Shown one piece after another: positions 46,401-52,400 of a stretch of DNA of 64,000 nt (position 1 is its first letter; the number at the start of each line of letters is the position of its first letter). Below the pieces are notes generated by a model. That model was given only the letters and a program-made list of their open reading frames with translations, had not been told where the DNA came from and did no database searches. The stretch spans positions 7,249,246-7,313,245 of the forward strand of contig NC_087081.1 in assembly GCF_026151205.1 (NCBI RefSeq). The letters are read 5' to 3'. This DNA is from Bolinopsis microptera. Taxonomy: Eukaryota; Ctenophora; Tentaculata; Lobata; Bolinopsidae. Both the position numbers and the translations under genes were made by a program.

Positions 46401-49400
46401 TGCATATCATATTAAGAAGAGGCGGGGAGGGTGCTGAGAAAGTCTGTGGATAATATTGACAGCAGAGATCGTACAGCAGAGATCGTACCTCTATAAAATA
46501 TGTATGCTCTACGCAGTGTAAATTGGGGGACAACCGAAAGAGGAATTGAACATAAAAGGATTATCAAAATAAATAAAAAATATAAACTATATAAATATAG
46601 TCCTTATAAGTAAGGACTAATAATCTATGCGATTAAGGTCGATTATAATCTATTAATTATAATCTACTTAGTACTTATTACAATGGATTTATAAACGTAA
46701 ATGAATTTCCGTGATCCTATAATTTAACGATGAAGCATTTAGTAGATCTAGCAAATTATGCTCTAAAGGATGTGTAAGCATGGTATTAGTAAAAGCCTAA
46801 ATAGATCAACGATCAAAGAAAATATATTTGATTTAAGAGTAATATAATATTTGAATACAGTACGCTAAGTTTTCACCAAAGGGGATTTACATCACTAACA
46901 TGTCATAAACCGACTTGTAATGGGCTTCTTTTTTTTGAGTTTTTAAAGCTATACAAGTATAAACTGTGCACACGCAACACATCCTGATTGAAGCACAACA
47001 TATTGAAGCTGAAGTGCTCTCAAGCGTGAAAGGGGGGAGGCCGTGAAGGTCATCAGACTGCTCTGTCGACAGGAAACTTTTTAAATCTGATATTTGACGA
47101 TGAGATGCCACCACAAAATGTTATCAGATCACGATAAATAGTTTGTAACAAGTCTAATGACTTATAACCAATTAGAACCCCAGCAAATATTAGAGCTGTG
47201 AAATGGTTCAGTAAATTCGCCATTTTACACCTATTTTAAAAAGGGGAGTCCACCCTTGTTATTTATAGCCCACATAAAATTTCGTATAAATTTAAAACTT
47301 GCTGGTGACAGAGAATCTGGTGTTTTTATACCATATTTAAAATAAAAACCAGCTTAATAGACTTCCCCGGTTCTTCATGTGAGGTCATATCAGAGGGAAT
47401 ATCAATTATCTAATTTACTGAAAGTTTTTATGCTCCAAAGGTACCACTGAGACCATATTTTGAAGCTTATACAATATTATATACAGTACTGTTGTCCTCC
47501 TTTAAAAAAAGCTCCAATCGCTGCTTTCGGCCTATTTGCAACAATTCAATATAAACCTAAAATTTATGACACATAAAGAGATAATCTTCATTTCAAAAAC
47601 CGGTAAAAATCAAATTAATTAAACAATTATCAGGCAATTAAAATACTCACAGTGATTAACAAGAGCATGTTCAGATGTATCATTAATTCTCTGTACAGCT
47701 GCAAGAAGAATCTCCCCTTTAGCTTTGCCCACCTCGCCTGAGAGTAATTATTGCGGACCTTTACTGATAGTTGAAATTCGACATATGACGTCATCTAGCG
47801 TCATCTAGCGTCATCTAGCGTGAAATATCGCCAGATGATGATAGATGACGCTAGATGACGCTAGATGACGCTAGATGACGCCAATTAGCGACATTGTCGC
47901 TAAGTGCACGGCACCTTTCGAATGTCGCTATCTAGCGCTATCTAGCGCTATCTAGCGCTATCTAGCGCTATATGACGCTATATGACGCTATATGACGCTA
48001 GATGACGCTAGATGACGCTAGATGACGCTAAGCACGCAGCACTGACGCCAGGCGACAGATAGCGCTATTTTCATAAAAATTCTAGGGACGACATCTAGCG
48101 TCATCTAGCGTCATATGTTGCCGCGACATCTGACGCTATCTGACGCCATCTAGCGATATCTGACGTCATCTGACGACATCTGTCGCGACGACATCTGACG
48201 CAGGCGACATCAAGCGCTGGATAGCGGGATAAGTCAGTTTACGACAGTTCACGCTATCTAGCGCTATATAGCGCTAGATAGCGTTAGATAGCGCTAAATA
48301 GCGTTAGATAGCGCTAAATAGCGAAGAATTTTGGGTCGTGACAGTCCAGGCTATTTAGCGCTAGATGTCGCTATCTAGCGCTATATGTCGCTGCGTTAGA
48401 TTTCGTCGCTACATATAGCACAAGATATCATATCCTATCACAGTAACAGTAATCCTAACTCTCTGTGTGTGTGTGTGTGTGTGTGTGTGTGTGTGTGTGT
48501 GTGTGTGTGTGTGTGTGTGTGTGTGTGTGTGTGTGTGTGTGTGTGTGTGTGTGTGTGTGTGTGTGTGTGTGTGTGTGTGTGTGTGTGTGTGTGTGTGTGT
48601 GTGTGTGTGTGTGTGTGTGTGTGTGTGTGTGTGTGTGTGTGTGTGTGTGTGTGTGTGTGTGTGTGTGTGTGTGTGTGTGTGTGTGTGTGTGTGTGTGTGT
48701 GTGTGTGTGTGTGTGTGTGTGTGTGTGTGTGTGTGTGTGTGTGTGTGTGTGTGTGTGTGTGTGTGTGTGTGTGTGTGTGTGTGTGTGTGTGTGTGTGTGT
48801 GTGTGTGTGTGTGTGTGTGTGTGTGTGTGTGTGTGTGTGTGTGTGTGTGTGTGTGTGTGTGTGTGTGTGTGTGTGTGTGTGTGTGTGTGTGTGTGTGTGT
48901 GTGTGTGTGTGTGTGTGTGTGTGTGTGTGTGTGTGTGTGTGTGTGTGTGTGTGTGTGTGTGTGTGTGTGTGTGTGTGTGTGTGTGTTTTACTGGGACCGT
49001 AAGCGCAGCCTGTCTTTTCCCACCCAATCTTTTTTGTTATTTTTATTTTATATGAAAATTAATTTTTACTGTGTATGAAAATTAATTATAATTTAAGTGA
49101 GAATGCAAATGATATAACTATAAGCTTGCGCGGCTCGTCGAAGTCACCCAACTATTACACTCGATTTATCAAATATTCGGCTGAGTGGAACAAAATATTA
49201 AATATCACTTAATCAAGGGGTCGTTTACATATTATAATTATATAAAGGGCCTGATGCCGCCGGCCGGGGTTTTCCAAATTATTACGCTCGCTAGTGTGAT
49301 TGTGACATAATACTAATAGCTTAATAGCTATGTATGGAACTGATTACTAACAATGAGGGGTCGTTCACATACCCCGTAATCAGTTTTACCATAGCTATTA

Positions 49401-52400
49401 TATTTATGTCAATATTACACTAGCGTAATCAATAATCATTTGAAAACCCCAACCTCCTCAGCTGATTACGTAATACTAATATGTAAACGACCGTCGACCC
49501 TTAACATTTCGGGATCGGAAGAAAGCGGCACGTACTATTTCGACGAAATTTATACAAGTTACTAACATCGTTGATTCATGATGCCAATCTTTCACAGCTC
49601 AGTGGTGCATTTCGCCGAAAAGCATTATTGGATACCGAGAAGCATTTTTGGATGCGCGGCGCGACACACTCACAGTAACGCATCGCGTTGATTCACGATG
49701 TCAATCCTTCACTGTTCATGTTCACAGCTCGGCGAGGCCCAGTCATGGTGCATATCGCCAATTTAGTAACATAGTTGGTCAGTTCGTACAAAAGTCGTAA
49801 AAAATTCGTACAGTTCGGCACGTTTTTTCAGTTCGGGATTAGTTTGGGAAAAATTCGCCTCATAAATTTTCGAAATATATAATAAAAAGCTAATTGCAAA
49901 AATTTGTGTTAAAATGGCGGGAAACGATGACGTGCGGATGCATGTTAATATTTTAAATCTGAAATGTAACCTCCCGGACAAAAATAACAAATTTTTCGGA
50001 CTGAAGTGATTACTGATTAAAAAACAAAAATTTTTTTAAAAATTCGGTAAAAATTCCTCGACAGCTTTTTAAAATTTGTACAGTTCGACACCTTTTAAAA
50101 GTTCGTACATACAGTAACGTACTGACCAAGTATGTTTAGTAAAGCACTAGTGGTTGCAAGAAGCATTATATTATTGGCTGCGCGGCGCGGCCCAGTAGTG
50201 CATCGCGCTACAACAAACATCGTCAAATAGATTACTCGAAGCTCAAAGCTGTAAAGTATTTATCCAAAATAATTCCGATCCCGAGGATTGTTACTGGGCC
50301 GCGCTCAGCCTGTCATTCCGCCAAATCTTTATTCGCCAAATCTTAATGTTTATGAACATGTACATAATAGCCTGGGTCCCCAGGTAAAAGGATTGACATA
50401 ACTTATAAATTTATAATATATTAATTCTAAATACTGAATGCATCGCATATCATTTTAAGGGTTTTGGTATTTTCGTAGCTAAATTGCACTAAAGCTTTCG
50501 CGCTTGCACTTCACACTTGCGCGTAGTTCGTAAACTGAAAACTCGTGGGTACGATATATGTGATTACTGAACAATAAATTCGGCTCGACTCTCATTACAT
50601 TCTTTTAATAACTTGCTGTGCGAGATTTCAATACTATTAATTTGCAAATGCTAATTTAACATTTAGATCTTTACATCATCTTCTTTCACATAGCCATGTG
50701 TCTAAGCGTACTACTAGCGAGAGGGCTATGGTTAGAGCATAAACAGGTTATACTGGACGAATCTCACTCGTTAACGGGTGATACTCGTAATTTACTATCA
50801 CGCGCCGCTTTTTCTCAAAATATTAGTCTAAGCCTATACCAGCCGGCAAAGTTTTTATATGTAACCTACATACAACGTTAAAATTTAGTTGAGTTTTGAA
50901 CGTTGCTTATAGTTGATAAGGTAACCTTGATCTAACGTAAAATAATAAACGTTTTGCAACGTTAAAAATAAAACCTATAACCAACGTTAGATATTTAACG
51001 TTTAACAACGTTTTATATGTAACCTACATACAACTTTAAAATGTAGTTGAATTTTAAACCCTGCTTATAGTTAATAAGGTAACCTTGATCTGACGTCAAA
51101 TAATAAACGTTTTGCAACGTTAAAAATAAAACCTATAACCAACGTTAGATATTTAACGTTTAACAACGTTTTATATGTAACCTACATACAACTTTAAAAT
51201 GTAGTTGAATTTTAAACTCTGCTTATAGTTAATAAGGTAACCTTGATCTGACGTCAAATAATAAACGTTTTGCAACGTTAAAAATAAAACTTATAACCAA
51301 CGTTAGATATTTAACGTTTAACAACTATAGCCATAGCTATAGCTGTCGCCGCGATATCTAGCGCTAGATAGCGCTATCTAGCGCTATCTAGCGTTAACTG
51401 TCACAAACCGATATTCTCCGCTAGATAGCGCTATCTAGCGCTAACAAGCGTTATCTAGCGGAGAATGTCGGTTTGTGACAGTTTACGCTAGATAGCGCTA
51501 TCTAGCGCTAGCTGTCGCCGCGATATCTAGCGCTAGATAGCGCTATCTAGCGCTATCTAGCGTAAACTGTCACAAACCGACATTCTCCGCTAGATAGCGC
51601 CAGATAGCGCTAGATAGCGCTAGATAGCGCTGCGTCAGATGTCGTTGCGACATATAGCGTTAGATAGCGCTAGATGTCGCAAAAAAAAGGGCGGAAATTT
51701 TATGAAAATAGCGCTATCTGTCGCCTGGCGTCAGTGCTGCGTGCTTAGCGTCATCTAGCGTCATCTAGCGTCATCTAGCGTCATATAGCGTCATATAGCG
51801 TCATATAGCGCTAGATAGCGCTAGATAGCGCTAGATAGCGCTAGATAGCGACATTCGAAAGGTGCCGTGCACTTAGCGACAATGTCGCTAATTGGCGTCA
51901 TCTAGCGTCATCTAGCGTCATCTAGCGTCATCTATCATCATCTGGCGATATTTCACGCTAGATGACGCTAGATGACGCTAGATGACGTCATATGTCGAAT
52001 TTCAACTATCAGTAAAGGTCCATTATTGCTTGATGAAAGTGGGGTAGGGACAAATCAGCGTGAAATACTTTCAATCTCATTACGATAGGTTTGTAGAAAA
52101 GTGTATTAACATTCAATGACAGTACAATGATATGCAGTTTGAATAATATGAATAATATGATTTATGAATATGAGTACTAAGATTGTTCAAGTAGATGACC
52201 ATGCGGTTGACGGCTGCTAAACAGCTGTGCAATATTAACATTTTTATATGTTTATATAAAATTAATATACTACAGCATAAATATACCACAGCAAAGCACG
52301 GGAAATGAGCAGATTTCAGTTTTATACCAGCTTCAGTGCCTCACCTTTCTTTCCAGCACTCTTTTCTCTCGCTTGTTTATCTTTGAAGTACCTGGAAGCA

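What the first reader, a model, noticed from the sequence alone, without database searches (positions are those of the whole stretch)
47747..52029. Young 4.27-kb foldback transposon with arms made of iterated TAGCGCTA/TGACGC motifs
A perfect 8-bp target duplication (ATTATTGC) and 324-bp terminal inverted repeats that I read as identical on both sides indicate a recent insertion. The arms are not simple repeats: they are ordered blocks of short direct repeats (CTAGCGTCAT x3, TAGATGACGC x4, TATCTAGCGC x4, TATATGACGC x3, TAGATGACGC x3). Inward they dissolve into nested hairpins of the same words. This resembles Drosophila Foldback/Galileo architecture but with a different motif set and an 8-bp duplication. 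No transposase is present, so an autonomous partner should exist elsewhere in the genome.
Basis: partly seen in the sequence, partly recalled or inferred. Interest (0 to 1): 0.8.

Follow-up and report, generated by a model that had tools for sequence, protein, structure and literature searches.

The report
Young foldback transposon family, word-array arms
This is a recently moved, protein-free jumping gene with long mirror-image ends built from repeated ten-letter words; some 270 matching ends occur in what looks like a comb-jelly genome, and it offers a testable case of how such hairpin-ended elements are built and moved.

Summary
It belongs to a family with 274 termini within 3 mismatches genome-wide, none for the reversed control; catalogued pairs span 206 bp to 13.8 kb. 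An exact 8-bp duplication flanks 23 of 27 copies checked, and one insertion has four long-aligned relatives without it. The genome fits the ctenophore Bolinopsis microptera (inferred). No transposase frame was seen in the copies read. GG termini plus 8-bp duplications fit the Merlin superfamily best. Merlins are present, and short-word arrays flank the transposase in six groups (11-bp spacing in four, 15/28 in two), but none read shares this end, so membership is not shown. Mutator is the main rival. Two tandem junctions both have a 5-bp spacer equal to five bases of the local duplication; this resembles copy-out junctions of bacterial IS256-type elements but rests on two cases. The autonomous partner was not found, and about 120 of the 274 ends were never listed.

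The parts
47747..47754 (.). left copy of the 8-bp target duplication ATTATTGC
47755..48078 (+). left arm (324-bp perfect terminal inverted repeat), starts GGACCTTTACTGATAGTTGAAATTCG, then 10-bp words
   Evidence: period; fold
48079..48463 (+). inner left arm: imperfect word arrays and nested hairpins
48464..48986 (.). TG microsatellite
48990..50850 (.). non-coding middle, largely shared with one of two groups of full-size copies; longest stop-free stretch in 48991-51330 is 90 residues
49219..49492 (.). piece inside the middle with GGTCGTTTACATATTA at both ends in inverted order, perhaps an older nested mini-element
   Evidence: ends only; no duplication tested
50853..51325 (.). 158-bp tandem repeat, 3 copies
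51335..51697 (-). inner right arm: word arrays, hairpins
51698..52021 (-). right arm, identical to the left arm
52022..52029 (.). right copy of the target duplication ATTATTGC

Best explanation
A non-autonomous foldback DNA transposon, moved in trans by a DDE-type transposase that recognises its outer end and makes 8-bp staggered insertions; the source is most likely a Merlin-superfamily transposase. Shown: precise insertion with an 8-bp duplication, many near-identical dispersed copies, no transposase frame in the copies read. Inferred: (a) Merlin as the source, from the terminal GG and the 8-bp duplication; (b) about 110 bp per end suffices, from mini-copies of 226 and 261 bp with perfect duplications (a deletion after insertion would leave the same picture); (c) the arms as arrays of binding sites phased at about one helical turn (10 bp here, 11 bp in four Merlin groups of the same genome) for a transposase or helper protein, because the word spacing is shared by groups whose arrays do not fold; (d) copies can become the centre of larger mirror-image elements.
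For: Exact 8-bp duplication in 23 of 27 copies with both ends held, plus C11:8440361-8444290; three of the four misses sit centrally in a larger element with mirror-image flanks. Empty site: the joined flanks of the C11 copy align across the junction in 4 loci over about 280 bp at 88.6-93.5%, and in 2 more over 73-93 bp. The stretch 49840-50640 is 94-99% identical in all 31 other matches that cover 500 or more of its bases (40 of 2495 candidates scored). Merlin: ends begin GG and duplications are 8-9 bp (PMC8101967, passages); 58 Merlin hits here, many in open frames; L065 is flanked by GAGCACAG and L063 by CAATGTAG. Lag-11 self-similarity beside the transposases of L064/L066, L071/L075, L069/L073 and L074, against lag 10 here. 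The L064 and L071 stretches folded do not beat shuffles (z +1.9, +0.7).
Against: No Merlin hit is nearer than 19 kb to any of 154 catalogued ends of about 274, and 17 Merlin proteins found no match in L001-L058 or the window (tblastn, E 0.01). This end is not significantly like the four Merlin ends or the outer-family end (p 0.08-0.78). Short-word arrays also occur elsewhere in the window with no known link to Merlin, so that trait is not Merlin-specific. Two of six Merlin groups (L059/L063 type and L065) have 15/28-bp rather than 11-bp spacing, and the arrays of L065, L074 and the outer family do fold, so folding is not excluded as a function.
Confidence: 0.55

Rival explanations
1. The same foldback element, but moved by a Mutator (MULE) transposase.
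For: [quoted passage not shown] Tm1 of root-knot nematodes is a Mutator/foldback with word-array arms (PMC3169594, passages). 88 MULE hits are in this genome. Both tandem junctions have a 5-bp spacer; the passages seen of PMC7780238 describe, for the IS256-family element ISCth4, 8-bp A/T-rich duplications, a promoter formed across a 5- or 6-bp spacer, and best integration with 6 bp, and call IS256-family transposases similar to MULEs.
Against: Duplications are exactly 8 bp in 23 of 27 copies, whereas Tm1 is mostly 9 and Tetris 8-10 (same papers). Two MULE hits lie near ends: one 1 kb outside C12:15187294, the other 3.3 kb inward of C1:4106382, where no matching right end (up to 7 mismatches) was found in C1:4109400-4112200 (4106861-4109399 was not read).
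Confidence: 0.25
2. A transposase of another or undescribed superfamily with 8-bp duplications moves it (hAT, P or new).
For: No partner found; hAT is abundant (150 of 365 candidates scored) and makes 8-bp duplications (recalled); P elements also make 8-bp duplications (PMC4168063, passage).
Against: GG termini do not fit hAT or P ends (recalled); no listed hAT hit lies in the seven pairs over 4.9 kb (by eye). P-type transposases were not searched.
Confidence: 0.17
3. Not a transposon: an old palindrome kept identical by gene conversion.
For: Long arms, strong folding.
Against: 274 dispersed termini, precise 8-bp duplications, an empty site, a single-copy left flank here; no clear arm homogenisation within copies.
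Confidence: 0.02

Closest known systems
Tm1, Mutator/foldback family of Meloidogyne (PMC3169594, passages)
   Same: Long arms of short tandem words, coding-free and MITE-like copies, 8-10-bp duplications
   Different: 13-15-bp word, mostly 9-bp duplications, asymmetric 7-bp ends, a putative transposase in some copies
Galileo of Drosophila (PMC4168063, passages) and Foldback (recalled)
   Same: Long arms of variable length, copies without transposase
   Different: Galileo: mostly 7-bp duplications with a GTATTAC consensus, P-superfamily transposase; tandem units of ~140 bp in one copy only
Tetris, Drosophila virilis (PMC4079207, passages)
   Same: Coding-free foldback, 8-10-bp duplications, no partner found
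   Different: About 220-bp units in the arms; its authors suggest Mutator
Merlin superfamily (PMC8101967, passages)
   Same: Terminal GG, 8-bp duplication; Merlins in this genome also have short-word arrays
   Different: No transposase inside, end sequence not shared with any Merlin read here
TU elements of sea urchin (recalled; cited in PMC4079207)
   Same: Foldback with tandem words in the arms, 8-bp duplication (recalled)
   Different: 15-bp word (recalled); sequence not compared

Membership tests
Foldback elements (structural class) | Long terminal inverted repeats made largely of short direct repeats | tested here: met
Foldback elements (structural class) | Dispersed copies with target duplications and variable middle | tested here: met
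Merlin | Terminal 5'-GG | tested here: met
   rule from PMC8101967
Merlin | 8-9-bp duplication | tested here: met
Merlin | DDE_Tnp_IS1595 transposase inside, or in a partner with the same ends | tested here: inconclusive
   None in L001-L058 or the window; 58 hits, none within 19 kb of 154 of about 274 ends
Mutator | Duplications of 8-11, usually 9, bp (recalled; 9 and 8-10 in PMC3169594 and PMC4079207) | tested here: inconclusive
   8 bp in 23 of 27: inside the range, not the usual 9
Mutator | MULE transposase in a partner with the same ends | tested here: inconclusive
   88 hits, no linked case seen by eye
Galileo (P superfamily) | Mostly 7-bp duplication with a GTATTAC consensus | tested here: not met
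P superfamily at large | THAP/P-type transposase in a partner | not tested
   No search was made
hAT | Ends beginning CA or TA (recalled) | tested here: not met
   GGACC ends

The most novel reading that the evidence does not exclude
A eukaryotic transposon family that can also use a bacterial-style asymmetric (copy-out) step: an element end joins exactly 5 bp outside another element's end, keeping five of the eight duplicated bases as spacer, while mirror-image arms phased at one helical turn act as the loading array.
Probability: 0.1. Interest if true: 0.85.

Novelty: new variant of a known kind. Interest (0 to 1): 0.5.

Why it matters
Why foldback arms are word arrays is, to my knowledge, open. 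Here unrelated arm sequences in one genome share 10-11-bp spacing, and two of them do not fold, which favours phased protein binding over hairpins and can be tested directly. The family looks young, its small copies narrow down the ends needed, and it lives in what looks like a ctenophore. Merlin in ctenophores is already on record (PMC8101967, passage: remnants in Mnemiopsis, 4 and 6 preserved frames in Pleurobrachia and Beroe), but the searches made showed no foldback family of this kind there.

Tried and rejected
Rejected or not borne out: (1) arm identity as proof of conversion within copies. (2) Hairpin formation as a property shared by the Merlin arrays. (3) Long copies as the autonomous element. 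The C8 copy holds a reverse transcriptase/endonuclease frame and a weak GIY-YIG match, the C3:10321088 copy a reverse transcriptase frame (Pfam), so these are nested retroelements; the 13.8-kb C5 copy has no frame over 114 residues; 2.5 kb of the 9.5-kb C12 copy has one frame of 117 residues without Pfam match, and about a third of it matches another repeat. Not fully read: C12 (2.5 of 9.5 kb), C7 (2500 N), C10:8633035-8638018 (nothing). (4) The MULE near C1:4106382 as partner. (5) Similarity of this end to Merlin ends. (6) Word arrays as a Merlin-only trait. (7) A second allele without the insertion: the 355-bp left flank has one match, itself. The tandem junctions as simple nesting: the C8 case fits an ordinary insertion with target TCCCCATT, because its second copy is cut short; the C3 case fits only with a further 3-bp loss (my reading of the sequences). 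The copy-out reading is therefore open, not shown.

Limits: pattern listings show only the first ~100 places, so 154 of about 274 ends were catalogued; the two large DNA searches scored 40 candidates each; the copies fetched were chosen by me, mainly complete pairs. Arrays were measured in 10 of 17 Merlin loci (not in L060-L062, L067, L068, L070, L072). The pair list includes nested cases: the 2680-bp pair uses an inner end, 11,811 bp is a nested composite, 929 and 279 bp are the two halves of the C3 tandem.
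Full report
What is there. The element occupies window 47755-52021, between two copies of ATTATTGC. Its 324-bp arms are identical, begin with GGACCTTTACTGATAGTTGAAATTCG, and continue as 10-bp words. Between the arms are imperfect inner arms, a TG microsatellite, a non-coding middle and a 158-bp tandem repeat. The longest stop-free stretch of the middle is 90 residues.

Where it is. 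The window lies on C10 of a 264.65-Mb assembly of 232 contigs. The 13 large contigs sum to 258.07 Mb, 97.5%. Bolinopsis microptera has 13 chromosome-scale scaffolds holding 97.23% of its bases and a k-mer size near 254 Mb (PMC10232365, passages). The window holds a gene with the DIOX_N domain of non-haem dioxygenases; isopenicillin-N-synthase homologues, enzymes of that kind, are the subject of a ctenophore paper (PMC4488382, search listing only), but the protein here does not end in the FYY that the search term names. I infer a lobate ctenophore, probably B. microptera; the percentages do not match exactly.

The family. 274 matches to the 26-bp end with up to 3 mismatches, none to the reversed control. 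Of 154 ends catalogued form 55 pairs: 17 of 206-1267 bp and 38 of 2.7-13.8 kb; 44 stay unpaired in this partial list. A sister set with GGACCTTTACCGAT ends includes pairs of 110-188 bp by coordinates, and L081 is an 87-bp copy with one end of each kind. The stretch 49840-50640 is 94-99% identical in all 31 other matches that cover 500 or more of its bases (40 of 2495 candidates scored). At least two kinds of middle exist.

Insertion. Among 19 copies, 15 have a perfect 8-bp duplication; of the other four, three have mirror-image flanks and one (L049) has unlike flanks. All 8 shorter copies with both ends, counting the C3 tandem as one, have it too: 23 of 27. Outside that count, by eye: L080 has mirror-image flanks and no duplication, L081 a duplication with 7 of 8 bases. 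In 23 duplications position 1 is a purine in 20 and position 8 is C in 11; 24 duplications, with C11 added, are 69% A+T. The C11:8440361-8444290 copy sits in another repeat; its joined flanks with one TTTAATTG align across the junction in L001, L053, L009 and L039 over about 280 bp, and in L067 and L069 over shorter stretches. The left flank of the window copy is single copy.

Larger mirror-image elements. Three copies (C1:11497113, C3:10321088, C7:708669) lie between mirror-image flanks of one outer family, and a fourth end (L033) has the same flank. The outer family's start, GGCAAGTTTCCATAAAG, was seen on both sides of the C3 copy and, with one base different, on one side of the C1 copy; at C7 too little flank was held. 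The C3 copy has the outer duplication CTAGATCC, read from the printed flanks, and outer arms of 678 bp at 99.3%. On both sides the flank reads CATGATTC before GGACC, so the inner element has no duplication of its own there. L080 (130 bp) also has mirror-image flanks. This could arise if a fold-back repair event copied one flank to the other side; that is inference.

Tandem junctions. A genome scan for two exact 12-bp ends separated by 0-10 bp found two places, both with 5 bp. At C3 the outer duplication is ATTGGATT and the spacer GGATT, its last five bases. At C8 the left duplication is CCATTTTG and the spacer CCATT, its first five bases. Seen from the element with the stub, both are the five bases next to its end. 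For the IS256-family element ISCth4 the passages seen describe 8-bp duplications and 5-6-bp spacers (PMC7780238). With two cases, and with ordinary nesting possible at C8, this is a lead.

Which transposase. Merlin ends begin GG, with 8-9-bp duplications (PMC8101967, passages). 58 Merlin hits occur here, many in open frames. Several Merlin loci carry a second open frame; Pfam matches in it are weak and below the curated cut-offs, in L065 to helix-turn-helix families. I held 17 Merlin loci and measured arrays in 10. Short-word arrays lie beside the transposase in six groups: L059/L063 type and L065 (15/28-bp spacing; of the first only L059 was measured for spacing, L063 was read by eye), L064 group, L071/L075, L069/L073 and L074 (11-bp spacing). 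Both ends and a clean duplication were found only for L063 and L065; for the L064 group only the left end (four copies); in L075 an end-like word recurs inverted but without GG; for L069/L073 and L074 no ends were found. Stretches of L064 and L071 do not fold better than shuffles; those of L065, L074 and the outer family do. So spacing, not folding, is what those four groups share with the window element. Against Merlin: no shared ends, no Merlin near any catalogued end, and word arrays occur elsewhere too. Mutator remains the main rival.

Literature. Searches for foldback with Merlin, ctenophore DNA transposons with terminal inverted repeats, Bolinopsis with transposable elements and Merlin with tandem repeats showed no account of this family or of foldback Merlins; one search listed two papers that hold the words foldback and Merlin once each, which I did not open. 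The library is open-licence papers only. PMC8101967 reports Merlin in three ctenophores and tandem repeats in some Symbiodinium Merlin copies (passages). Papers were seen as listings, abstracts or passages, none in full.

Verdict. What looks new is the family, the probable host, and the shared 10-11-bp spacing. The mechanism beyond 'moved in trans with 8-bp duplications' is inference.

Noticed in passing
L064/L066, L065, L059/L060, L071 (G000 C1, C2, C8, C4): Merlin loci with a second open frame besides the transposase, in L065 on the opposite strand and with weak, below-cut-off helix-turn-helix matches.
   Followed up: partly
C3:5178075-5179287 and C8:4866250-4870047: Two tandem pairs of this family with an exact 5-bp spacer made of five of the eight duplicated bases.
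   Followed up: partly
L036/L037, L016/L017, L039/L040, L033; L080: This element (or its end) inside larger mirror-image flanks without its own duplication.
   Followed up: partly
window 15174-15489, 15960-16148, 18449-18645: Arrays of the 8-bp word GTAACCAG/AGGTAACC.
   Followed up: no
window 39765-39905, 46057-46183, 53534-53670, 61669-61774: Further word arrays of period 10, 11, 20 and 25 outside the element; possibly arms of other transposons.
   Followed up: no
window 61949-63560: Long TCC-rich array with strong strand skew.
   Followed up: no
window 27669-28150: Frames that resemble the MULE stretch of L082 by eye, next to a 10-bp array at 27029-27248; no Pfam match.
   Followed up: partly
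window 30309-31427: Gene with the DIOX_N domain of non-haem dioxygenases, ending FKAYLK.
   Followed up: partly
L082: MULE transposase remnant with a FLYWCH zinc finger, beside iterated GGACTGAATCACTACC words.
   Followed up: no
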